A stretch of DNA of 64,000 nucleotides. Origin: Acidobacteriota bacterium (GTDB lineage Bacteria > Acidobacteriota > Terriglobia > Terriglobales > Acidobacteriaceae). Position 1 is the first letter of the stretch. Every line of letters starts with the position of its first letter. The notes beneath the pieces are model-generated. The model ran no database searches and had not been told where the DNA came from. It was given only the letters and a program-made list of their open reading frames with translations. Of the stretch, positions 34,890 through 46,378 are shown one piece after another. Both the position numbers and the translations under genes were made by a program. The stretch spans positions 1 to 64,000 of the forward strand of contig JAJXZT010000048.1 of the NCBI GenBank assembly GCA_021779935.1. The letters run 5' to 3'.

Positions 34890-36329
34890 ATGCGAAGTGC
34901 CTATCTCGGTGTACTGCTGGGAGCCGTGCTGGCCGCAAACTGTCCTTTTGCCGCGGCACAGGCCGTGACTCCCGTGGCTTCGCCTGTTGTGGTTGGCAAT
35001 AACACGCAGGCCGAGCGGATTGCACAATTGGAAGCAAGCGTTGCCAGCGCCAAAAGCTCGGCCGACAACGCATGGATGCTGGTTTGTTCGGCCCTTGTGC
35101 TGATGATGACCGGCCCGGGGCTCGCGCTGTTTTACGGCGGGCTGGTGCGGAAGAAAAATGTGTTGTCCGTGATGATGCAGAGTTTCTCAATGATGGCGCT
35201 GATCACGGTTGCCTGGGGAATCATCCTCTACAGCCTTGTCTTCAGCGGAGGAAATTTCTTCATCGGAGGGTTCCACCACATGTTTCTGCGTGGCGTGGGA
35301 GCGGCTCCCGATGCGGCGTATTCGGCGACGATTCCGTTGCAGACCTTTATGGTCTACCAGTTGATGTTTGCCATCATTACGCCGGCGCTGATCACCGGTG
35401 CATTTGCCGAAAGAATGAAGTTCAGCGCGATGGCCGTATTTCTTGTCCTCTGGTCCATCGTTGTTTATGCGCCCATGGCGCACATGGTCTGGGGCAAGGG
35501 CGGGCTGCTGAACGCAACGCTGGGCGGAAGAATTCCGACGCTCGACTTTGCCGGTGGAACCGTGGTCCACATCACTTCAGGAGTTTCCGCGCTGGTGTGC
35601 GCTCTTTATCTTGGCAAGCGTGTTGGATATCCGCGCGAGCCCATGCCGCCGCACAGCGTGGTGCTCAGCTTTATCGGCGCCTGCATGTTATGGGTGGGAT
35701 GGTTTGGCTTCAACGCGGGCAGCGCACTCTCCGCCGGACCGCTGGCGACCAGTGCATTCGTCGCGACGCAGTTTGCGGCGGCCGCGGCGGTGATTGGCTG
35801 GGGCGCTGCCGAGTGGGTTCATCATGGCAAGCCCAGCGCCCTGGGAGCCATCTCCGGCGCGGTTGCCGGGCTGGTGGCCATCACGCCCGCCGCCGGTTTC
35901 GTCGGTCCCATGGCGGCGATGTTGATTGGTCTGATGGCCGGTGTTTTCTGCTTCCTCATGGTAAGCAAGGTGAAGTCGATGTTCGGGTATGACGATACGC
36001 TGGATGCATTTGGAGTGCACGGCGCCGGCGGAACGCTGGGAGCATTGCTGACGGGAATATTCGCATCGAAGGCCATCAACCCGATCTTTAAGGATGCCGG
36101 AGGTCACGCGCTTGCCGTGGGAGTGATCGACGGGAATTTTCGCCAGTTGTGGAACCAGACAATTGGAGTCGCAATGGCCTGGACGCTCGCCATCGGCGGT
36201 ACGCTGGCGATATTGTTCGCGGTCGATAAACTGATCGGCCTGCGGGTTTCAGTCGAGCACGAGACCGAAGGACTGGACGTCACACAGCACGGCGAAGAAG
36301 GCTATTACTGGGAGACCTCCGCCCGGTAG
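34890..36329 (+). CDS. amt: Ammonium transporter
   Basis: A 479-residue Amt channel. A cleavable signal peptide precedes the 11-helix domain, as in E. coli AmtB. Typical segments are NAWMLVCSALVLMMTGPGLALFYGGLVRKKN, FAGGTVVHITSGVSALV, WVGWFGFNAGSAL and DAFGVHGAGGTLGALL. Together they contain the twin His of the pore (HITSG and GVHG). It moves ammonium across the inner membrane and is blocked by GlnK-type PII. It heads a cluster with glnB 50 nt and glnD about 430 nt downstream. Confidence 0.95.
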   Translation: MRSAYLGVLLGAVLAANCPFAAAQAVTPVASPVVVGNNTQAERIAQLEASVASAKSSADNAWMLVCSALVLMMTGPGLALFYGGLVRKKNVLSVMMQSFSMMALITVAWGIILYSLVFSGGNFFIGGFHHMFLRGVGAAPDAAYSATIPLQTFMVYQLMFAIITPALITGAFAERMKFSAMAVFLVLWSIVVYAPMAHMVWGKGGLLNATLGGRIPTLDFAGGTVVHITSGVSALVCALYLGKRVGYPREPMPPHSVVLSFIGACMLWVGWFGFNAGSALSAGPLATSAFVATQFAAAAAVIGWGAAEWVHHGKPSALGAISGAVAGLVAITPAAGFVGPMAAMLIGLMAGVFCFLMVSKVKSMFGYDDTLDAFGVHGAGGTLGALLTGIFASKAINPIFKDAGGHALAVGVIDGNFRQLWNQTIGVAMAWTLAIGGTLAILFAVDKLIGLRVSVEHETEGLDVTQHGEEGYYWETSAR

Positions 36330-36343
36330 TTTCAGTGCGATGA

Positions 36344-36718
<375 letters not shown>

Positions 36719-36760
36719 TCGGGGTTTGAACTCCCGCACGGCCTGAATGGAATTCTCATT

Positions 36761-39340
36761 ATGTCAGCGGCTTCCAATCTCGCTTTGATCAAGGACACCT
36801 ACGAGCGGGAGTCTGCGCGGATACGCGAACAGTTCATGGCGAGCGGCAGCGGCGCGGAGGCATTGCTGGCCCGCACTGAACTGGTGGATGGACTGGTTCT
36901 GCAATTGTGGAGGACGCACGTGGCGCCCGCGCTGGGAGACTCCGATGCCGTGGCGATGATCGCGATTGGCGGCTATGGACGCGGCGCGCTCTTTCCGCAC
37001 TCCGACGTCGATCTACTCTTCCTTTTCGAGAAGCAGCTTCCAGGGCAGGATTTCAAGGACCGCATCCGTTCGCTCTGCCAGGAGTTGTGGGACGGGCGAC
37101 TGCGCGTCAGCCCCACAACGCGCACACTTGCGGACTGCAATCAATTTCGCACGGACAACGTCGAGTTCAGCATCTCGTTGCTCGATTGCAGGTTCGTCGC
37201 CGGCAGCCGTGAGCTCTTCGATCAACTTCACGACAAGACCATTCCCACGCTCGTGCAGCGTGAATCGCAGACGATTCTGCAGCGGTTGATCGAAGTGAAC
37301 GAAGAGCGCAAGACGAAGTTCGGAAACACGATCTTTCATCTTGCGCCGAACGTGAAAGAGGGCGTCGGAGGTTTACGCGATCATCACCAGGCATGTTGGC
37401 TTGCACTGCTGAAGTCGCTGGCGGACAAGCGAGGATGGACTTCACCTGAAACGGCATTTCCCGACTCACTGCGGGAGAAGACGGCGCAGGCGTTCGAATT
37501 CCTATGCTCGGTGCGGTGCTTCCTCCACTATCAAAACGGCCGCGACGATAACACGCTTTCGTGGGAGGCGCAGGAGATCGCCGCGTCACGCGGCATCGGA
37601 GTGCAGACCGCCGGAGTCGATGCGGCATCGTGGATGCGCGCCTATTTCCGGCACGCGCGCAGCATTGCCTATCTGTCATCGCTGCTGCATGAGCAGGTTG
37701 CCGCCGTGCAGTCGTCGCTCTACCGGCAATTCCGGAACTGGCGCGCACGAGTTTCCAACGCCGATTTTTCAGTGGCAAACGATCATGTCTATTTTCAGCA
37801 ACCGTCGGCCGTGACTGATCCGGACCTGATGTTGCGCGCCTTTGAATTCGTGGCGCAACACGGGATTCCGTTGTCGTGGGCGGCGGAGCGGCGGATGGAA
37901 GAAGCGCTGAGGGACGTGACGCAAAGTCTGGCGCCATACATTGAGTGGTGGCGATATTTGTCGTCGATCCTGGTGAAACCCCATGCCGCCGATGCACTGC
38001 GGACGATGCAGCGGCTGGGAGTGCTTACGCTGATGGTGCCGGAATTTTACGAGATAGATGCGCTGGTGTTGCGCGATCTCTACCACCAGTACACGGTGGA
38101 CGAGCACACCTTCCTGGCGATCGACACGGTGCATCGCCTGCGCGAACCGGAGTCCGATTGGGAGCGTTGCTTCTCCGGTGTGCTGGAGGAGCTGGAAGAT
38201 CCAGCAGTGTTGTTCGCCGCGCTTCTGTTGCACGACGTCGGCAAGGGATTCCCCGGCGAGAATCACGTCACCAGAAGCGCGGAGATCGCGCGGGCCCGGC
38301 TGCAAAGTCTCGGAGTGGCCACGAAGAAGATCGAGACCGTGGACTTCCTGGTGAGCAATCACCTCGCGATGTCGGCGGCGATGAGGCGCGATATCTTCGA
38401 CGCGGAGAGCGTGCGCGAGTTTGCAAACACGGTGAGCACGCCGGAGCGGTTGAAAATGCTGCTGTTGCTGACCTATGCGGACATCAAGGCGGTGCACAAG
38501 GACGCGCTGTCGCCGTGGAAGGCCGAGAACTTGTGGCAGCTTTATATCGCAACGTCAAACCATCTCAACCGTTCCGTGGACGACGACCGCATTCATGCCC
38601 CGGAAGACAGCGAGCAGATTGCACGCATCAAATTGCTGGCTCCACGCCTGGGAAAGCGCCTGCGGCGCTTCATGGAAGGCATGCCGCAGCGTTATCTCGG
38701 ATTGCACTCGGCGGAAGAGATTGCCGCGCACGTGGAGATGGCGGCGCTGGTTTCCGGCAAGAACGTGCAGGTAAAGCTGAACCGTGAAGGGTCGCTGTTC
38801 GAGCTGGCAATCGTCGGCAACGATCGTCCGATGATGTTTGCCAACGTGGCCGGAACGCTCGCCGCGTGGGGCATGAACATCGTCAAGGCGGACGCGTTTT
38901 CCAACGCCGCGGGACTAGTGGTCGACACCTTCTATTTCACGGACAGGTTCAGGACGCTGGAGTTGAATCTCTCGGAGTGGGAGCGTTTCCAGAAAAGCGT
39001 GTGCGATGTGCTCACCGGGTTTCTTCCGTTGCAGGCGTTGATGAGGGGAAGGATGAAGCCTGAAACGAAAGCAGCAAAAACAATCGTGGCGACGAAAGTG
39101 GAATTCAACAACGAGTGTTCTTCTCACAGCACTCTGTTGCAACTGATCGCCACGGATCGCCCTGGTCTGCTGCACAAGGTAAGCACAAGGATTGCCGAAG
39201 AAGGTTGCGACATCCATGTCGCCTTGATCGACACCGAAGGCCAGATGGCCATCGACGTCTTCTATCTCACGAAAGATGGCGAGAAGCTGAGCGCGGAATT
39301 GCAGCGGACGCTGCGGGAGTCGATTCCGCGCGAGCTATAG
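36761..39340 (+). CDS. glnD: PII uridylyltransferase/uridylyl-removing enzyme
   Basis: An 859-residue bifunctional enzyme that adds and removes UMP on Tyr51 of PII in response to glutamine. The nucleotidyltransferase site GGYGRG (70-75) and DVD (82-84) is followed by the GlnD helical domain. The HD phosphohydrolase has [14 protein letters not shown], and two C-terminal ACT domains follow (one starting [14 protein letters not shown], the other [13 protein letters not shown]). All parts look intact. It completes the amt-glnB-glnD cluster; glnA is not in the window. Confidence 0.95.
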
Positions 39341-40690
39341 CTATCGCGTGGCGATCATCAATCCGCTGGGGCCAGGCAGGCGAACCCGTTCCACCTTCGC
39401 GAAGCCTGCGGCTTTCATCCACTGTTCGTACTCTGGTTCGCTGTAGCTGCTTCCAGCTTGTGTTCCCACCAGCATATTCAGCGAGAACAACGCGGCGAAC
39501 TGCGGCGCGGTTTTGTCCGCTTCCAGAATGAAGTCCTGCACGACGAGCCTTCCGCCCGGTGCGAGTGCCGCGCACGCCCGTTGGAAAATCGCGCGGTTCT
39601 GCTCCTCGGAAAACATGTGACATATCGCGTTGAGCAGAACGAGGTCATAGTTTTCGCCGAACGGATCCGTCAGCATGCTGCCGGCGCGAGCGGTGATGCG
39701 GCCGGAGAGACCGGCTTTGCCGATGTAGCTGCGCGTGAGGGGCACAACGTCCGGCAGATCAAGAATGTCAGCGTGCGCGCCCGGGAGTTCGCTGACGAAC
39801 GCGATGGAGTATGCAGCGGACCCGCCGCCAAGATCGAGGATGCGACGAATGCCGTTCGCGGCGACAGCCTTGACCACATGACGTGCGCGCTCTTTCGCGT
39901 TGCGGTCCATGGCGGCTATGAAAGCTTCTGTCCACGAACTGTCAGAGCCACGCTGGCTGACGGAAGTTCCGGCGCGCACGCAGTCCGTAAGAGTGGACCA
40001 GCGATGCCAGATGTGTGCCGTGTGCAGAAGACCGCCGCGCGCATTATCTTTTGATCCCTCGACAAAATAGCGCGAACTGAGAGGTGTGTTGGAGAAGACG
40101 CCGTCCTTCTTTTCCAGCAGCTTGAGACTCACCAGCGAATTCAGCAGCATCTCAGTGGCGCGCGGGTTGGCATTCGCTTTTGCGGCAACCACCTCGGGGG
40201 AGCCGCCATTGCCGACGGCGGTGAACAGGTCGAGTTCGAGCGCAGTGAGGATTGCGCGGCTGGGCATGTAGCCGCGGATCATGTCATTGAGCGGATCGGG
40301 CATGATACCGGCACGGTCGCGCGCCTGCATCATGGCGCGGACGTGGTCGCGATGCTCAAGCGCGGCGGCCTTCATCGCGGGAGCATCGTTCCACACCAGC
40401 CGCGCCACGGGCCTGCCGGAGTGGAGATGCGACTCCACGATTTCGGCAACGTCCTCGGTTTTTACGCCGCGATACCAGGTGCCTTCCGGATAAACGATCA
40501 TCACCGGGCCGTGATCGCAAAGACCCATGCAGCCGCAGGTTGTGACCTGCACGTCGTCGTCGAGTCCCTGCTTGCGCAGTTCCAGGTTGAGCGTGTCGAA
40601 GATGCGCGCAGAACCGGCGGCCGCGCACGACGTTACGCCCTCGGGTTTTTGCTGCGAGCAAACGAATACGTGATGACGGAAGGCTTCCAT
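39341..40690 (-). CDS. Thioredoxin-like [2Fe-2S] ferredoxin fused to an O-methyltransferase
   Basis: A 449-residue two-part protein. Residues 1-90 match a thioredoxin-fold [2Fe-2S] ferredoxin: Cys11 and Cys22 near the N-terminus, Cys54-x3-Cys58 in CGCMGLCDHGPVM, then VYPEGTWYRGV. After a linker, residues about 125-449 form a class I O-methyltransferase of the acetylserotonin/hydroxyindole type. This part has a dimerisation winged helix (SRAILTALELDLFTAVG), SAM motif I ILDLGGGSAAYS and an AICHMFSEEQN block. It reads through in one frame with a good ribosome-binding site (AGGAGA). Substrate and role of the cluster are unknown. Confidence 0.9.
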   Translation of the reverse strand: MEAFRHHVFVCSQQKPEGVTSCAAAGSARIFDTLNLELRKQGLDDDVQVTTCGCMGLCDHGPVMIVYPEGTWYRGVKTEDVAEIVESHLHSGRPVARLVWNDAPAMKAAALEHRDHVRAMMQARDRAGIMPDPLNDMIRGYMPSRAILTALELDLFTAVGNGGSPEVVAAKANANPRATEMLLNSLVSLKLLEKKDGVFSNTPLSSRYFVEGSKDNARGGLLHTAHIWHRWSTLTDCVRAGTSVSQRGSDSSWTEAFIAAMDRNAKERARHVVKAVAANGIRRILDLGGGSAAYSIAFVSELPGAHADILDLPDVVPLTRSYIGKAGLSGRITARAGSMLTDPFGENYDLVLLNAICHMFSEEQNRAIFQRACAALAPGGRLVVQDFILEADKTAPQFAALFSLNMLVGTQAGSSYSEPEYEQWMKAAGFAKVERVRLPGPSGLMIATR

Positions 40691-40744
40691 GCTCTTCTCC
40701 TGCGCAATCGGCGCGTCCCTATTGTCGGCAGGGAAGACCCGTGC

Positions 40745-40768
40745 TGCCGTGACTCACATCACACGGCA
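40745..40768. promoter_or_regulatory. CRP/FNR-like palindrome in a divergent promoter region
   Basis: TGCCGTG (40745-40751) and CACGGCA (40762-40768) form a perfect 7-bp inverted repeat. Inside it CGTGA-CTCACA-TCACA resembles the TGTGA-N6-TCACA operator of the CRP/FNR family. It lies between the ferredoxin-methyltransferase gene and the RNB exonuclease gene, which diverge. Confidence 0.45.
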
Positions 40769-40865: not shown

Positions 40866-42356
40866 ATGAGCCACTTTAATCGTGCTTCCCGCGTCGACCT
40901 CAGCACCATCGCCAACCAGATCATGATCGAGCACGGCTTCGAGCCGGAGTTTTCTCCAGAAGTGAGGCAAGAGGTGGAGGCGCTCGCTGCGATCCCGCCC
41001 AGAGTTGCGTCCAATGGGGAGATTCGCGATCTCCGCGGACTCTTGTGGTCATCGATCGATAACGATACTTCGCGCGATCTCGACCAGATCGAGTTTGCGC
41101 AACGGCTGCCCGACGGAACCATCAAGGTGCTCGTCGGTATTGCGGACGTTGATACTTGCGCGGCAAAAGACACTGCCATTGATTTGCATGCGGCGAAAGA
41201 GACGACGACGGTTTACACCGGCGTTCTCGTGTTTCCCATGCTGCCCGAGGAGCTTTCAACGGGCGTTACGTCGTTGCTTGAAAACGAAGATCGGCTGGGC
41301 ATCGTCATCGAGTTCGTTGTCAATGGCGACGGCCACATCGGCGCGAGCGATATCTATCGCGCCGTGATTCGCAACAAGGCGCAACTGACGTACAACGCAG
41401 TGGGCACGTGGCTGGAAGGCAACGCCGACGCGCCGGCGAAAGTCGCTGCGTCCAGCGAGTTGCAGCAACAGCTCAGATTGCAGGATGAGGCGGCGCAGGC
41501 GTTGAAACTGGAGCGGTATCGCCATGGCGCCCTGGATATTGAAAGCACGGAAGCGCGTCCGGTGGTGGACGACGGACACATCGTGGACCTGGTGAAAGAA
41601 GAACGAACTCGCGCGTCAGAGCTGATCGAAGATTTCATGATCGCTGCAAACGAAGTGGTGGCGCGCACGCTGGAAGCGAAAAAAGTGTCGTCGATCCGGC
41701 GCGTGGTCAAGACGCCGAAGCGCTGGGATCGCATCGTGGAGTTGGCCGCGCGCCATGACGAAAAGCTCCCCGCGACGCCGGATTCAAAGGCGCTCAGCGA
41801 TTTTCTGACGAGGCGCAAGGCCGCCGATCCCGATCACTTTGCCGACCTGTCGCTTGCGGTAATCAAACTGATGGGCCCGGGCGAGTACGTCCTGGAGCGT
41901 GCGGGCGATCCTCCGCAGGGACATTTCGGCCTGGCCGTCGAAGACTACACGCATTCCACGGCGCCGAACCGTCGCTTCGCCGACCTTGTCACCCAACGCC
42001 TGCTGAAGGCGATGTTCACGAATCAATCGTCGCCATACTCGGACGATGCGCTCGCCGAGGTTGCACGGAACTGCACAGTGAAGCAGGACCAGGCACGCAA
42101 GGTGGAGCGCGAATTGTCGAAGAGAATCGCGGCTACGGTGATGAGCCACCGCATCGGCGAGGAGTTTGACGCGATCGTGAGCGGCGTAACCGCGCACGGA
42201 ACCTACGTGCGCATCCTGAAGCCGCACGTGGAAGGAATGCTGGCGCAAGGACAGCAGGGAGTGGATGTCGGCGACAAGCTACGCGTAAAGTTGATTTCCA
42301 CCGATCCGCAGCGAGGCTATATCGATTTTGCGCGCACGCAGCCTGCTGGAAAATGA
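40866..42356 (+). CDS. RNB-domain (RNase II-like) exoribonuclease
   Basis: A 496-residue protein with a central RNB catalytic domain and a C-terminal S1 RNA-binding domain (EEFDAIVSGVTAHGTYVRIL). It lacks the two N-terminal cold-shock domains of RNase II and RNase R. The active-site block reads SIDNDTSRDLDQIE, with Gln where RNase II has the last Asp of DxDD; the other acidic positions are kept. HSTAPNRRFADLVTQRLL is the conserved C-terminal RNB block. It should degrade RNA 3' to 5' in the cytoplasm. It is shorter than RNase R and closest to the compact RNB family of Deinococcus and cyanobacteria. Confidence 0.88.
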   Translation: MSHFNRASRVDLSTIANQIMIEHGFEPEFSPEVRQEVEALAAIPPRVASNGEIRDLRGLLWSSIDNDTSRDLDQIEFAQRLPDGTIKVLVGIADVDTCAAKDTAIDLHAAKETTTVYTGVLVFPMLPEELSTGVTSLLENEDRLGIVIEFVVNGDGHIGASDIYRAVIRNKAQLTYNAVGTWLEGNADAPAKVAASSELQQQLRLQDEAAQALKLERYRHGALDIESTEARPVVDDGHIVDLVKEERTRASELIEDFMIAANEVVARTLEAKKVSSIRRVVKTPKRWDRIVELAARHDEKLPATPDSKALSDFLTRRKAADPDHFADLSLAVIKLMGPGEYVLERAGDPPQGHFGLAVEDYTHSTAPNRRFADLVTQRLLKAMFTNQSSPYSDDALAEVARNCTVKQDQARKVERELSKRIAATVMSHRIGEEFDAIVSGVTAHGTYVRILKPHVEGMLAQGQQGVDVGDKLRVKLISTDPQRGYIDFARTQPAGK

Positions 42357-42401: not shown

Positions 42402-43745
42402 CTATTTTCCGGCCAACAACTCTTCCGCGGTTTCCATGTCCACCAAACCGTTGCATCCATAGAGGGCCGGCAATACGCGCTCGGGCGGAACCCTGCGACG
42501 CAGGGCCGCGACACGTTCGGTGCCGGAGCGATAGGCCGGCAGGTACATGCGCCCCAGCAGCGGATGCTGTCCCCATGCGCCGGAAAGCTTGTCTGCGCGC
42601 TCTTCGCTCACCAGGAAATCGCGGCGAAGAGTTATCGCGACTTCTTCACGCTTCATGCCTTTTCCCCACGTCAGGTACGACGACTGGTTCTTCGCGTCAT
42701 CCTGCAAGAGCGCGAGCAGCACGCCAATCTGCAAATCCTCGTCGGGCAACTGTTCCACTTCCGTGACGCCATGCGCGATGAGGATTGCGTTGTTGGCGAT
42801 GCCCTCGAACAGTGTTGCCGCGCGTGTGTTCATGGTGAGGACTGATGCCTCGAAGCCGGCGAGCCCGCGGACGTAGAGATTCTGAAGATAGGCAAATGTG
42901 GTGACGTGTCCCGGGACGACCTCGTGGCTGATGAGCTGGTAAAACTCCGGGACGGAGATTTGCAGCGACGCGTTGATTTCGTACGTCGCTTCATATTGCG
43001 GGGAGCCATCCTGGTTGCGAGCGCGTCCCACGTAGTTCATGGAGCCGGAGAACCATGCATCCTTGATCGGCAGGAAATCGATATTGGCGCGCGGGACCTG
43101 CATGAGCTCTTTCGGCAGGTAGGGCGCAAGATGCTTTTCACTGAGGCGATCGTAGTAGGCGATCACCGCGCTGCTCAGGGTTCGCACCGATGCCATGGGG
43201 ATGTTGCGCGCGTGGCGCCATGCATCGACGGCTTGCAGCAGGGAATCCGGCGTCGATGAAGGATGTCCGGCGCGGGCGAGCAACTCGGCGACTCGTTTCC
43301 GTTTGGCTTCCGGCTGCGATGGCTCCGGCGGCCGTCCCGTGGAAGCCTCGACGCATCTCGCGTAAGGGACGGGTGCGCCCTTGCCGAGAATTTCCATGGC
43401 AAGGTCCCACATGACTTCCAGGCAGAGCGCGAGCCCGTTGAGATATTTGCCGCGCAGGCTGGCGACTTTCGCGGCCTCGGCGCGAACTCCCGCGATAGCC
43501 GCTGGAAGGTTGACTTCGCGCAGATAGGCTTCCATTGCTTCGCGATCGATCTGCTTGCCGGACACCCCGCCGGTCGCACGCACGCGTGCCGCCGATGTGG
43601 TCGTGTAAGCGACGGGCAGCGGTTCGTCGGAAAACCAGGAGTCGGCGATGAACCGTCCGGTTCCGGAGGGACACATGACATCGCCGCCCCAGAGGGTGTC
43701 GATGCCGAGGACTGCGTCGGCGATGAATCGGGAAATCTGGTCCAT
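42402..43745 (-). CDS. DUF885 family putative metallopeptidase
   Basis: A 447-residue protein with the DUF885 zinc-site motif HEVVPGH in its middle and a downstream Glu-containing stretch, LFEGIANNAILIAHG. DUF885 proteins are predicted carboxypeptidase-like metalloenzymes with few characterised members. The start codon overlaps the stop of the OPT transporter gene by one base, which suggests translational coupling: the enzyme may act on what the transporter imports. No signal peptide is present, so it is cytoplasmic. Confidence 0.85.
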   Translation of the reverse strand: MDQISRFIADAVLGIDTLWGGDVMCPSGTGRFIADSWFSDEPLPVAYTTTSAARVRATGGVSGKQIDREAMEAYLREVNLPAAIAGVRAEAAKVASLRGKYLNGLALCLEVMWDLAMEILGKGAPVPYARCVEASTGRPPEPSQPEAKRKRVAELLARAGHPSSTPDSLLQAVDAWRHARNIPMASVRTLSSAVIAYYDRLSEKHLAPYLPKELMQVPRANIDFLPIKDAWFSGSMNYVGRARNQDGSPQYEATYEINASLQISVPEFYQLISHEVVPGHVTTFAYLQNLYVRGLAGFEASVLTMNTRAATLFEGIANNAILIAHGVTEVEQLPDEDLQIGVLLALLQDDAKNQSSYLTWGKGMKREEVAITLRRDFLVSEERADKLSGAWGQHPLLGRMYLPAYRSGTERVAALRRRVPPERVLPALYGCNGLVDMETAEELLAGK

Positions 43746-45742
43746 TAAGCCTCCTTATTCTTCTTCATCGACCCGAACCACACATAGAGGCAGAGGGCGA
43801 CAAACATGAGTGCCGAGACCGATTGCGAAATGGGATCGTAGAGGTAGAACGGCGTCTGGATCAGGTCCTCCCTATACCAGGGGAAGAGTCGTAGCGCCGC
43901 GCCGAACACGCCTCCCAGCGCGCCGCCCGCCATCAGTCCCGACGCGATAATCACTCCACGTTCACGAATGCTTCTGCCGTGTTCTCCACCGGTGCGCTCT
44001 GAGCGCTTGTTGAGATAGTGTGCCAGAAACCCCCCAACCAGTGCTGGTGTGTTCAATTCGAGCGGAAGATACATTCCCAGCGCGAAGATCAACGACGGCT
44101 GGCCGAGCATCTCCAGAACGAGTGCGATCATGGCGCCGGCGCCAAACAGAATATATGCGACCGGTTGACGGCTCATGAAGCCCTCAACCAGTTCTTTCAT
44201 GATCGAAGCCTGCGGAGAAGCCAGCACCGGACGCAAGTCGCCGGGCAACGCTTCACCGAACTGGAATGCGCGCGCCAGCATGACGATGGTGAGTCCGGCC
44301 ACGGCTGCCGCGGCAATCACGCCGATGAATTTCGCCTTCTCCTGTGCGGCCGGTGTCGAGCCAATCCAGTAGCCGGTTTTCAGGTCGGTGATTGTCTGTC
44401 CAGAGACCGACAATGCGGTGCAGACCATTCCAGCAATCGCCATGACAAAGAACATGCCGGTTGTTCCGGAGAGTCCGAAGCGAAGCAGGACAACGCACGA
44501 GATGATGATCGTGAGCATCGTCATCCCGGAGACAGGATTGCGCGCCGTGGTGGCGATCGCATTCGCCGCAACCGACGTAAAGAAGAAGGAGAACAATAGC
44601 GTCAGCAGGAGTCCTATCCCGACAACCGTCCACGTCACCGGCAGCCGTCCCAGGAACACGCCCACGCCGATGGCTCCAAGCACTACGCCGAGAAAGATGC
44701 CGATCATTGGAACGTCGCGGTCGGTGCGCTCGGTGTTGTTGGATTCGCCGTGGCGAAAAACGCGCATGGCGATACCGAACGAGTTGGCTACGATCCTCAG
44801 CGATTTGATGATGCCGAAGATTCCGGCCGTGGCAATTGCCCCAACTCCGATGAAGCGCACATAGCTGCGATAAATCTGCACCGCGCTCATGTTGGAGATG
44901 GGTATCGTCCCGGGATAAACCGCGGCGGCAAAGTGTCCGCCGATCATCCAGATCAGCGGCACCAGCACGAAGTTGGAGAGCACGCCGCCGGCGCACAGAA
45001 TCATCGAACTGCGCAATCCCATCACGTAGCCCAAACCGAGGATGAAGCTGATCGCGTCGAAGTTGAAGACCATGCGCGCGCGGTCAGTCAGCGTACGCAT
45101 CACCGGGATGTACTGGAAATCCACGAACTCCTTCCAGACATGGAAGGTGGTGACGAAGAAATCGTAGATGCCGGAAATGGCTGTCGCCTGCAACAGCAGC
45201 TTCGCCTGCGAACCGCCCTTCTCGCCGGTGACGAGGACTTCCGTGATCGCCGTCGCCTCGGGGTAGGGAAGCATGCCATGCATTTCACGCACAAAGTAGC
45301 GGCGCAACGGGATGAGGAAGAGCACGCCCATGCATCCGCCGGCCAGGCCGATGAAGATGGTCTGCACCGGGTGCGGATCGAGGTGGAGGATGTACAGCGC
45401 GGGAAGAGTAAAGATCGCTCCGGCCACCACCGAACCGGCAACGCCGCCGATGCCTGTAATGATCACGTTTTCCAGCACCGTCGAGCGGCGCGAATAAACG
45501 CGTGCGAGTCCGATCGCCAGGATGGAGATGGGGATGGCGGACTCCATCACCTGGCCCACCTTCAGTCCGGAGTAGGCCGAAGCAACGGTGAAGATGATGC
45601 AAAGGAAAACACCCCAGCCGATTGAGCGCGGCGTAAGTTCCTTCATCTTCGCGCTCGCGGGAACGATCGGCGAATAGGTTTCACCGGGCTGTAGGGGCTC
45701 GTAGGCGTTCAGTGGCAGGGACTTTGTTTCGGCCTCATTCAT
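43745..45742 (-). CDS. OPT family oligopeptide/metal-chelate transporter
   Basis: A 665-residue polytopic membrane protein with about 15 hydrophobic segments. Family signatures are ELTPRSIGWGVFLCIIFTVASAYSGLKVG near the N-terminus, EMHGMLPYPEATAITEVL, and NPVSGMTMLT in the second half. OPT carriers of this bacterial branch import oligopeptides or metal chelates with protons. ATG at 45742 follows AGGAGG; the longer frame upstream is not family sequence. It is coupled to the DUF885 peptidase gene. Confidence 0.92.
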   Translation of the reverse strand: MNEAETKSLPLNAYEPLQPGETYSPIVPASAKMKELTPRSIGWGVFLCIIFTVASAYSGLKVGQVMESAIPISILAIGLARVYSRRSTVLENVIITGIGGVAGSVVAGAIFTLPALYILHLDPHPVQTIFIGLAGGCMGVLFLIPLRRYFVREMHGMLPYPEATAITEVLVTGEKGGSQAKLLLQATAISGIYDFFVTTFHVWKEFVDFQYIPVMRTLTDRARMVFNFDAISFILGLGYVMGLRSSMILCAGGVLSNFVLVPLIWMIGGHFAAAVYPGTIPISNMSAVQIYRSYVRFIGVGAIATAGIFGIIKSLRIVANSFGIAMRVFRHGESNNTERTDRDVPMIGIFLGVVLGAIGVGVFLGRLPVTWTVVGIGLLLTLLFSFFFTSVAANAIATTARNPVSGMTMLTIIISCVVLLRFGLSGTTGMFFVMAIAGMVCTALSVSGQTITDLKTGYWIGSTPAAQEKAKFIGVIAAAAVAGLTIVMLARAFQFGEALPGDLRPVLASPQASIMKELVEGFMSRQPVAYILFGAGAMIALVLEMLGQPSLIFALGMYLPLELNTPALVGGFLAHYLNKRSERTGGEHGRSIRERGVIIASGLMAGGALGGVFGAALRLFPWYREDLIQTPFYLYDPISQSVSALMFVALCLYVWFGSMKKNKEA

Positions 45743-45948
45743 TGAGGGACGATCCTCCTGATAGCTGGAAGCCGCGGTGTGCTGCTCGCTTTCCTGCGCG
45801 CAAAAGCGTGACCGTGGCTCTCCTTGGCGCTTTTGCGCCAATGCGGGAGTTCATCATCTGGCACGGAAGTGTGGCAAGTGCGAATGTCACAGAGGTGAGT
45901 GTGGCGAAAAATGGACGATACAGGGGCTTTGCGACGACCTGTTGCGGC

Positions 45949-46350
45949 TTACCCGTCGACGGTGGCGCGCGCTTTCTCTATTTGCACTGGGTTGGCTGCG
46001 GGCGTTGCGCCCGGCACGCTCGCGATCCATGCTCCCATCCGGTTTGCGGCATCGTTCATCGTCGCTAGATTCGAGCCGCGCAGGTAGTGATGAACCAGCG
46101 TGGCCGTGAAGGCGTGGCCCCAGTTCATGTGGCCCCAGGTGTTGCCCTCGGGATTGTATTGATAGAAGAGGTGATACTCGCCCTTATAGAAGACCAGCCC
46201 GTTGGGATCGTTCATGAAGTTCCGCGCCGGCGTGAAGTGGAATTGCGGACGCCAGGGCTGATCGTAGGCATTCTGCGCGAACAACCGCACGCTCGTGGAG
46301 AGCATCGCGCACAGCGCGATAAGTCGGAGTATCGATCGTTTGGGTAGCAT
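45949..46350 (-). pseudogene. Truncated GH32 (fructosidase/levanase-like) gene fused to unrelated sequence
   Basis: The first part is a signal peptide plus the start of a GH32 beta-fructosidase: WRPQFHFTPARNFMNDPNG (with the MNDPNG nucleophile motif), then YKGEYHLFYQYNPEGNTWGHMNWGHA. Family identity stops there, at about residue 85 of a fold that needs about 300 residues for the propeller. The next 48 residues (LVHHYLRGSNLATMNDAANR...) do not look like GH32. I see no remaining GH32 sequence downstream before the OPT gene. It is probably the remnant of a large deletion and cannot be an active fructosidase. Confidence 0.75.
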
Positions 46351-46378
46351 CTTTTTTCTACGCATCTCCCCGAGCGCG

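What the first reader, a model, noticed from the sequence alone, without database searches (positions are those of the whole stretch)
39341..40690. Ferredoxin fused to an O-methyltransferase
One open frame encodes a thioredoxin-fold [2Fe-2S] ferredoxin with all four cluster cysteines (11, 22, 54, 58) followed by an acetylserotonin-type SAM methyltransferase. Methyl transfer of this kind needs no redox cofactor. The cluster may sense redox state or oxygen, deliver electrons to a partner that makes the substrate, or make the enzyme a redox-coupled tailoring step. A CRP/FNR-like palindrome lies upstream, which would fit redox control.
Basis: partly seen in the sequence, partly recalled or inferred. 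Interest (0 to 1): 0.7.

Follow-up and report, generated by a model that had tools for sequence, protein, structure and literature searches.

The report
Iron-sulfur ferredoxin fused to methyltransferase
A bacterium carries one protein that joins an electron-carrying iron-sulfur domain to a methyl-transferring enzyme; the same join recurs in many related bacteria, which suggests, without yet proving, that this methylation is tied to the cell's redox or oxygen state.

Summary
The fusion is real. The 449-aa frame lies on the minus strand (39341-40690): an N-terminal thioredoxin-like [2Fe-2S] ferredoxin, a predicted linker helix, and a Dimerisation/Methyltransf_2 O-methyltransferase. It is no frameshift: 78 of the 80 relatives kept from genome contigs cover both domains, in four phyla (the query was the fusion, so kept loci lean that way). 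In 79 full-length proteins Cys11, Cys22 and Cys58 are invariant; residue 54 is Cys (44) or Ser (35), and all 35 Ser54 proteins carry Cys52, suggesting a relocated ligand. The presumed catalytic His358 is invariant. No gene neighbour is widely conserved. An upstream CRP-type site exceeds chance across the family (7 of 78; shuffle mean 0.255), and half of the like sites in this genome (11 of 22) lie by heme, cytochrome or other redox genes. Best reading: a redox-coupled O-methyltransferase used at low oxygen. Substrate, electron donor and whether the cluster donates electrons, senses or docks are untested. Each half belongs to a known family; five literature searches listed no description of the combination.

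The parts
39341..40690 (-). CDS, 449 aa, ATG at 40690-40688, TAG at 39343-39341; ferredoxin-O-methyltransferase fusion
   Evidence: full-length homologues
40391..40690 (-). thioredoxin-like [2Fe-2S] ferredoxin domain, residues 1-100
   Evidence: PF01257 at residues 6-87; best solved relative Aquifex aeolicus Fd 1f37, E 2.2e-22
40658..40660 (-). Cys11 codon, cluster ligand (by homology)
   Evidence: 79 of 79 full-length family members
40625..40627 (-). Cys22 codon, cluster ligand (by homology)
   Evidence: 79 of 79
40535..40537 (-). Cys52 codon, extra cysteine; inferred ligand in the Ser54 clade
   Evidence: 70 of 79; 35 of 35 of the Ser54 members
40529..40531 (-). Cys54 codon, third cluster ligand (by homology)
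   Evidence: Cys in 44 of 79, Ser in 35 of 79
40517..40519 (-). Cys58 codon, fourth cluster ligand (by homology)
   Evidence: 79 of 79
40298..40390 (-). linker, residues 101-131, with a predicted helix at 103-126
   Evidence: AlphaFold2 model, ten-residue block pLDDT 83-89 over residues 101-130
40061..40297 (-). O-methyltransferase dimerisation domain, residues 132-210
   Evidence: PF08100
39398..39958 (-). SAM-dependent O-methyltransferase domain, residues 245-431
   Evidence: PF00891; fold match 5i2h Z 32.4, rmsd 2.4, 301 residues aligned
39617..39619 (-). His358 codon, presumed catalytic base
   Evidence: 79 of 79; aligns with the His of Plim_1147 (5i2h) and MfnG
40745..40768 (-). perfect 7-bp inverted repeat with a 10-base spacer
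   Evidence: read
40748..40763 (-). CRP/FNR-type operator-like site TGTGA-N6-TCACG
40697..40700 (-). GGAG, likely ribosome-binding site, six bases before the ATG
   Evidence: read from the sequence

Best explanation
A single-chain, redox-coupled O-methyltransferase made at low oxygen. SHOWN by sequence: a genuine, recurrent fusion of a thioredoxin-like [2Fe-2S] ferredoxin with an ASMT/COMT-type SAM O-methyltransferase; cluster cysteines kept in every full-length member examined; the presumed catalytic His and the SAM motif kept; no widely conserved gene partner; an upstream CRP-type site. INFERRED: the C-terminal domain moves a methyl group from SAM to a hydroxyl of a small, probably aromatic or quinone-like, substrate with His358 as base. 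A reduced flavoprotein or ferredoxin donor charges the [2Fe-2S] cluster, and the cluster passes single electrons to the substrate in, or on its way to, the methyltransferase site, keeping it as the phenol or quinol that alone can be O-methylated. The gene is switched on by a CRP/FNR-family, probably oxygen-sensing, regulator, so it works when electrons are in surplus. Electron delivery as against pure sensing is my choice between two close options.
For: Fusion recurs: full length in 3 of 41 genomes (own plus 40 relatives), 8 of 396 genomes of the phylum at E 1e-60, 78 of the 80 loci kept. The ferredoxin part is under selection: Cys11, Cys22, Cys58 in 79 of 79, Cys52 or Cys54 in 79 of 79; mean majority share per column 0.709 for residues 1-100 against 0.693 for 132-449. 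Residues at the known ferredoxin dimer interface (His7, Phe9, Tyr69, Gly55 of A. vinelandii FeSI; PMC8561814, part 1) correspond to H7 (79 of 79), F9 (71), Y67 (79) and G53 (79) (register inferred from the cysteines). Enzyme intact: H358 79 of 79 and aligned with the His of 5i2h and of MfnG, a tyrosine O-methyltransferase by its title. In G070 a free ferredoxin of this clade (69% to the L115 domain) exists together with an unlinked methyltransferase relative; both are absent, at E 1e-15 and 1e-40, from the 8 other genomes of its family, which suits a domain that can act in trans. Regulation.
Against: Two close relatives, L039 (58%) and L040 (54%), have the enzyme without the ferredoxin domain, so the cluster is not needed in every lineage; L039 groups with other enzyme-only proteins and may never have had it, since the tree is not rooted. 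No electron donor, substrate or redox partner could be named; neighbours are not conserved. The model gave no inter-domain error, so the distance from cluster to active site is unknown. The G070 co-occurrence is one case in 9 genomes. The candidate regulator L192 matches the Fnr profile far below its cut-off (54.4 against 228 bits), and its best solved relatives are CRP/GlxR-type (E 5.6e-17) ahead of FNR (best E 2.9e-8). 71 of 78 upstream regions lack the site.
Confidence: 0.38

Rival explanations
1. Redox, oxygen or iron sensor: the cluster never feeds electrons to the substrate; its oxidation state or presence changes the shape or dimer state of the enzyme and so turns methylation on or off.
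For: Methyl transfer needs no electrons. The cluster domain directly precedes the dimerisation domain, joined by a predicted helix. Two relatives have the enzyme without the domain, as one expects of a regulatory part. Gene possibly in an oxygen-responsive set.
Against: The domain is closest to electron-carrier ferredoxins and to ferredoxin domains of HydB and NADH-dehydrogenase-type flavoproteins, not to known sensors; control may already exist at transcription.
Confidence: 0.3
2. Docking or structural module: the ferredoxin fold brings the methyltransferase to a redox enzyme (flavoprotein, hydrogenase or dehydrogenase) or holds the dimer together; the cluster is kept for stability only.
For: Ferredoxin dimer-interface residues are kept (against PMC8561814). 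Plant DGAT3 is a transferase with the same kind of ferredoxin domain whose cluster has no established role; its authors speculate on a reductase activity (PMC6250708 abstract and Discussion).
Against: Strict upkeep of the ligands, with Cys52 present whenever Cys54 is replaced (35 of 35), is more than a fold needs.
Confidence: 0.22
3. Non-methylating chemistry: like RdmB in the same fold family, the protein binds SAM but performs a redox reaction (for example a hydroxylation or reduction) with the fused ferredoxin as electron source.
For: RdmB (1qzz), titled a 10-hydroxylase, is a relative at E 5.9e-11 and a fold match; a built-in electron source would suit such a reaction.
Against: The His at the catalytic-base position (79 of 79) and D386 (78 of 79) are kept, typical of true O-methyltransferases (role of both recalled).
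Confidence: 0.08
4. Artefact: two genes joined by a sequencing or assembly error.
For: None found.
Against: Same junction in 78 of 80 loci from many assemblies; no stop inside the full-length matches.
Confidence: 0.01

Closest known systems
Thioredoxin-like [2Fe-2S] ferredoxins (Aquifex aeolicus Fd 1f37; Azotobacter vinelandii FeSI 5abr; Clostridium pasteurianum Fd)
   Same: Four-cysteine pattern and sequence; 1f37 is the best solved match to the N-terminal domain; dimer-interface residues kept
   Different: Those are free small proteins; here the domain is the N-terminus of an enzyme, and one clade has Ser54 plus Cys52 in place of Cys54
ASMT/COMT-type O-methyltransferases (Plim_1147 5i2h, MfnG 7ux6, human ASMT 4a6d, RedM, PigF)
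   Same: Dimerisation plus Rossmann domain, SAM motif LDLGGGS, His at the catalytic-base position in 5i2h and MfnG
   Different: No solved methyltransferase listed was matched over the ferredoxin part (one search shows the best 60 of 79, stops at E 1e-10). 22ow has about 140 residues before its enzyme part, but the ferredoxin query did not match it at E <= 1
DSYB / MTHB methyltransferase (7wdq)
   Same: Best single-sequence match to the enzyme part, E 4.8e-35
   Different: No His at the position of His358 in the alignment; match does not reach the ferredoxin part; substrate cannot be carried over
Plant DGAT3 (Arabidopsis At1g48300)
   Same: A group-transfer enzyme with a thioredoxin-like ferredoxin domain, shown to hold a [2Fe-2S] cluster (PMC6250708 abstract)
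   Different: Acyltransferase, ferredoxin in the C-terminal region, Cys spacing C-X4-C (PMC6250708 Discussion); unrelated enzyme part
CbiX/SirB proteins of haloarchaea
   Same: Plasmid hits to the ferredoxin domain at 39-41% lie under genes annotated CbiX/SirB N-terminal domain-containing protein, i.e. apparently another fusion of the same ferredoxin domain to a non-redox enzyme
   Different: Chelatase-type partner domain; domain order not examined
Yeast Dre2 / human anamorsin
   Same: Iron-sulfur protein with a SAM-methyltransferase-like domain (seen only as a reference title in PMC11126956)
   Different: Recalled: eukaryotic, other iron-sulfur domain, methyltransferase-like part first, electron transfer for Fe-S assembly; no methylation known
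Ferredoxin domains of HydB / 51-kDa NADH-dehydrogenase-type flavoproteins
   Same: Homologous domain; HydB and NiFe-hydrogenase subunit B show the same GC-X3-C ligand pair (alignments)
   Different: There the domain is part of a multi-cofactor electron chain; here Pfam shows no flavin or other cofactor domain

Membership tests
Thioredoxin-like [2Fe-2S] ferredoxin (PF01257) | Profile match above curated cut-off | tested here: met
   29.9 bits against 24.8
Thioredoxin-like [2Fe-2S] ferredoxin (PF01257) | Four cysteine ligands in the known register | tested here: met
   Cys11, 22, 54, 58 in the window protein, aligned with Aquifex Fd
Thioredoxin-like [2Fe-2S] ferredoxin (PF01257) | Bound [2Fe-2S] cluster | not testable with these tools
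   needs spectroscopy
Thioredoxin-like [2Fe-2S] ferredoxin (PF01257) | Thioredoxin-like fold | tested here: inconclusive
   models are confident, but the fold searches were filled by the methyltransferase part
NCBIfam ferredoxin equivalogs NF041612 / NF041613 | Whole-protein score above curated cut-off | tested here: not met
   81.2 against 150 and 67.5 against 195 bits; not a member of these exact families
ASMT/COMT-type O-methyltransferase (PF00891 with PF08100) | Both domains above cut-off | tested here: met
   101.2 against 22.3 and 48.7 against 25.6 bits
ASMT/COMT-type O-methyltransferase (PF00891 with PF08100) | Catalytic-base His and SAM motif I | tested here: met
   H358 79 of 79; D286, G288-G290 79 of 79; H358 aligned with His of 5i2h and MfnG; that this His is the base is recalled
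ASMT/COMT-type O-methyltransferase (PF00891 with PF08100) | Transfers methyl to a hydroxyl | not testable with these tools
   substrate unknown
BchU bacteriochlorophyllide C-20 methyltransferase (TIGR02716) | Score above curated cut-off | tested here: not met
   65.8 against 276.1 bits
CRP/FNR-regulated gene | Operator-like site upstream, kept in relatives | tested here: met
   TGTGA-N6-TCACA 9 of 10; also 9 of 10 in L049, L050, L051, L060, L065, L070; 7 of 78 against shuffle mean 0.255; 71 of 78 lack it
CRP/FNR-regulated gene | FNR-type consensus TTGAT-N4-ATCAA | tested here: not met
   window region scores 7 of 10; across the family 4 of 78 reach 8 or more against about 2.9 in shuffles
CRP/FNR-regulated gene | Binding by an oxygen-sensing regulator | not testable with these tools
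   candidates L191 and L192 carry an N-terminal Cys cluster; L192 scores below the Fnr cut-off and is nearer to CRP/GlxR structures

The most novel reading that the evidence does not exclude
The fused cluster takes a direct part in the reaction: the enzyme performs reductive O-methylation, reducing a quinone-like substrate one electron at a time and trapping the resulting hydroxyl as a methyl ether, a self-contained redox methyltransferase. In one clade its [2Fe-2S] cluster has also naturally swapped its third ligand from Cys54 to Cys52, or uses Ser54 as an oxygen ligand.
Probability: 0.18. Interest if true: 0.78.

Novelty: new variant of a known kind. Interest (0 to 1): 0.52.

Why it matters
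SAM O-methyltransferases of this class are textbook enzymes that need no electrons. A family found in four bacterial phyla, whose fused members all keep an iron-sulfur site, makes it testable whether methylation can be driven or gated by redox state. The Cys54/Ser54 split also offers a natural series for studying how a protein moves a cluster ligand without losing the cluster. All 80 record titles name metagenome-assembled genomes, many of them labelled bog, fen, palsa or peat, so neither the gene product nor its metabolite is likely to have been seen in culture (inference).

Tried and rejected
Gene-neighbourhood search: mechanical ORFs around 81 loci (80 plus the window), clustered by blastp and single linkage. 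Apart from the gene itself, no family lies within 3 kb in more than 5 of 81 loci. Two of those families come from the same five relatives (one MerR-like by eye, one small protein); one is an M13 peptidase family in five loci on varying sides. A DUF885-like gene and an OPT-transporter gene lie together near the fusion in three loci (window, L068, L076). I rejected a conserved operon or biosynthetic cluster; the ORF caller was crude and many contigs are short.

BchU-like tetrapyrrole methylation: considered because heme genes share the operator-like site and TIGR02716 matched at E 3.3e-18, but the score is far under the cut-off. Left as an open thought.

DSYB-like DMSP synthesis: best single-sequence enzyme match, but the His differs. 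Rejected as an assignment.

Solved two-domain relative: 22ow (461 aa) has about 140 residues before its methyltransferase part, but the ferredoxin query (E up to 1) and the family profile matched only the enzyme part. What its N-terminus is I could not see.

Plasmids: the whole protein matched 277 records, and none of the 20 listed reaches the ferredoxin part (all start at residue 100 or later); two records with at least 80% of the query in one place were counted but not listed, and I did not look at them. The ferredoxin part alone matched 96 records, 15 listed. Phage records and viral contigs were not searched.

One search translated L001, L004 and L036 on the wrong strand, and its alignment is void; redone. 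The regex caught 32 motifs in 37 loci; the misses were not chased. One search printed only one of twelve loci. The fold searches were filled by the methyltransferase domain, so the ferredoxin fold was not tested by structure. The window model gave about 13-18 A rmsd to the other relatives listed by Foldseek but 4.0 and 3.7 A to 5i2h, so its placement of the dimerisation domain against the catalytic domain is not to be trusted; the L115 model aligns throughout.

Literature: seven answered searches. Searches asked about the fusion; none listed a paper on it. One search was weak (11,201 papers, 15 listed); two searches found no paper. I looked at passages of the single hits (PMC11237513; PMC11126956): the passages shown do not describe this fusion. 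Of PMC6250708 I read the abstract and Discussion, of PMC8561814 part 1 of 3; all other papers were seen as listings only. The library is open-access PMC only.

Full report
OBSERVATION. The frame at 39341-40690 is on the minus strand and codes for 449 residues. GGAG stands six bases before the ATG, and the gene ends back to back with a convergent glnD-like gene (36761-39340; GlnD_UR_UTase). An RNB-domain gene (40866-42356) is divergent. Domains: 2Fe-2S_thioredx at 6-87, Dimerisation at 132-210, Methyltransf_2 at 245-431, each above the Pfam cut-off. The best solved relatives are Aquifex aeolicus ferredoxin for the first part (1f37, E 2.2e-22) and SAM methyltransferases for the second. Cys11, 22, 54 and 58 align with cysteines of Aquifex ferredoxin.

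IS THE FUSION REAL? In its own genome (4.49 Mb, 72 contigs) the full protein occurs once, with a separate methyltransferase paralogue (C67, 32%) and a separate ferredoxin (C5, 36%) elsewhere. Of 41 genomes (own plus 40 relatives), 40 have some match and 3 hold the full fusion. Of 396 genomes of the window's phylum searched at E 1e-60, 18 match: 8 over both domains, in five families (f1, f28, f31, f37, f65), and 10 over the enzyme part only. In genome contigs, 232 stretches matched a pattern, 169 encode a relative and the best 80 were kept; 78 of these cover residue 1 to at least 445, and the other two (L075, L113) begin at a contig end. The query was an alignment of fused proteins, with one pattern in each domain, so the kept loci lean towards the fused form and the 89 weaker relatives were not seen. 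Titles place the 80 in Acidobacteriota, Zixiibacteriota (L115, L119, L125, L126), Gemmatimonadota (L120) and Verrucomicrobiota (L127); all are metagenome-assembled genomes by title. Some are probably the same records as loci. A frameshift artefact is excluded.

THE CLUSTER SITE IS UNDER SELECTION. I aligned 79 different full-length proteins: 78 plus the window; L075 and L113 were left out as short. Cys11, Cys22 and Cys58 are in 79 of 79. Residues 52 and 54 are Cys/Cys in 35, Cys/Ser in 35, Ser/Cys in 7 and Thr/Cys in 2: no protein lacks both, and every Ser54 protein has Cys52, although residue 51 varies there (T, A, V, S, E, M). The ferredoxin part is as conserved as the enzyme: mean majority share 0.709 for residues 1-100, 0.693 for 132-449. 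On a tree of the methyltransferase part alone the Cys54/Ser54 state changes once; the Cys54 group is one side of a branch at SH-aLRT 94 (quick method, not starred). So Ser54 with Cys52 is one inherited event, not 35 independent ones. Outside the family, the motif scan found 21 loci (20 genes, one gene fetched twice) with Cys54 and no Cys52, and four from family f26 (L150, L151, L156, L157) reading CGSVGFC, so the relocated pattern exists elsewhere too; whether all these are free ferredoxins was not checked. The solved Aquifex variants 1m2b and 1m2d show Ser in place of the third and fourth ligand (alignments); that they still hold a cluster is recalled. So Ser54 proteins probably still bind a cluster, through Cys52 or the Ser oxygen.

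THE ENZYME PART. D286, G288-G290 of the SAM motif and His358 are invariant in the 79. His358 aligns with the His of Plim_1147 (5i2h) and of MfnG; its role as general base is recalled from COMT-type enzymes. The AlphaFold2 model has mean pLDDT 90.7 and pTM 0.85, with a helix at 103-126 between the domains; a Ser54 member gave 92.1 and 0.79. The best fold match is 5i2h, Z 32.4, rmsd 2.4 A over 301 residues. No inter-domain error was returned, so I claim nothing about how near the cluster lies to the active site.

ENZYME WITHOUT FERREDOXIN, AND A SPLIT. L039 (58% identical over the enzyme part) and L040 (54%) start just before the dimerisation domain, and none of the upstream frames printed shows a ferredoxin by eye (700 bases printed for L039, the 358 bases to the contig end for L040). 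A tRNA-Ser gene lies just upstream in L039. In the unrooted tree L039 groups with seven other enzyme-only proteins (88) and L040 lies among Ser54 fused proteins; L040 may be a loss, while L039 may be a loss or the older state. In G070 the ferredoxin plus linker is a free gene (L129; 69% to the L115 domain), while a methyltransferase relative lies on another contig. In the family of G070 both are present in G070 and both absent from the other 8 genomes at E 1e-15 and 1e-40: one event, suggestive only; 6 of the 9 genomes are at least 90% complete.

CONTEXT AND CONTROL. No neighbour is widely conserved. The upstream site TGTGA-N6-TCACG recurs at nearly the same place in L049 and L050 (69 bases from site start to ATG, 73 in the window; proteins 69 and 68% identical) with a different spacer. 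At least 9 of 10 matches are found in 7 of 78 upstream regions (window, L049, L050, L051, L060, L065, L070), against a mean of 0.255 and a maximum of 2 in 200 dinucleotide shuffles. These seven are not all independent, and 71 of 78 lack the site, so it is not a family-wide feature. The FNR consensus is not enriched. In this genome the perfect palindrome TGTGA-N6-TCACA occurs 19 times against 0 for the reversed control, and TGTGA-N6-TCACRG 16 times against 3; together 22 sites, the window's among them. Next to 11 I found cytochrome bd subunit I, NuoC, two cytochrome c7 genes, ALAD (hemB), CtaA, a pyruvate:ferredoxin oxidoreductase (a divergent DUF1800 gene is nearer), a hydrogenase maturation protease, a cytochrome c assembly gene followed by hemA, URO-D (hemE) and hemL. 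Six others lie by a universal stress protein, DnaJ (site inside the gene), GlyS, Rsm22, a glycosyltransferase and a TPR gene; four (L164, L168, L172, L196) have no named gene. I picked the adjoining ORFs mechanically, and did not test how often random sites fall near such genes. Of five CRP/FNR-family proteins, L191 and L192 have an N-terminal Cys cluster. The Fnr profile matches L192 at E 1.1e-14 but below cut-off; among solved structures CRP/GlxR types score better (E 5.6e-17) than FNR (best E 2.9e-8). A low-oxygen regulon is a fair reading, with catabolite-type control not excluded; that FNR-type proteins use such cysteines is recalled.

MECHANISM. The cluster very likely matters, since selection keeps it while a ligand moved; the enzyme very likely still methylates, since its presumed catalytic residues are fixed; low-oxygen control is plausible. 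The reading I rank first is electron delivery that keeps a redox-active hydroxyl substrate reduced for methylation (0.38). Redox gating (0.30) and docking (0.22) are close behind. The enzyme-only relatives speak for a supporting rather than an obligate role of the cluster.

NOVELTY. Each half is a member of a known family. Transferases or other enzymes carrying this kind of ferredoxin domain are known: plant DGAT3 (PMC6250708), and haloarchaeal genes annotated CbiX/SirB lie under hits to this domain. Yeast Dre2 is an iron-sulfur protein with a methyltransferase-like domain (reference title in PMC11126956). I found no report of this ferredoxin-methyltransferase combination, within an open-access library only. 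I file it as a new variant of a known kind.

Noticed in passing
window 45949-46365, minus strand: A 138-aa frame starts as a GH32 glycoside hydrolase (PF00251 profile positions 1-73 of 307) and then runs into an unrelated end; it looks like a deletion remnant. By eye the end resembles a sugar kinase C-terminus.
   Followed up: partly
window 42402-43745 and 43745-45841, minus strand: A 447-aa protein that matches DUF885 only weakly (E 0.0045, below cut-off) next to an OPT-transporter gene; the same pair lies near the fusion gene in L068 and L076.
   Followed up: partly
window 34890-39340, plus strand: An ammonium-transporter-like protein (by eye), P-II and a GlnD-like uridylyltransferase lie in a row, a nitrogen-control group ending back to back with the fusion gene.
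   Followed up: no
L150, L151, L156, L157 (family f26 genomes): Ferredoxin-type proteins outside this family with CGSVGFC at the third-ligand region, i.e. the same Cys-to-Ser shift.
   Followed up: partly
own genome G000, 19 sites of TGTGA-N6-TCACA: A likely regulon rich in heme-synthesis, cytochrome and respiratory genes with a CRP-type operator, and two CRP/FNR-family regulators (L191, L192) with N-terminal cysteines.
   Followed up: partly
L039 (genome G301), 1303-1392: A tRNA-Ser gene and repeated stretches resembling parts of it (by eye) lie just upstream of the enzyme gene that lacks the ferredoxin part.
   Followed up: partly
L078, L098, L100, L122, L124: A gene family whose L122 member is an M13 peptidase lies within 1.4 kb of the fusion gene in five loci, on varying sides.
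   Followed up: no
plasmid hits H30, H32, H33, H34: In haloarchaeal plasmids the ferredoxin domain matches under genes annotated CbiX/SirB, another apparent fusion of this domain to a non-redox enzyme.
   Followed up: no
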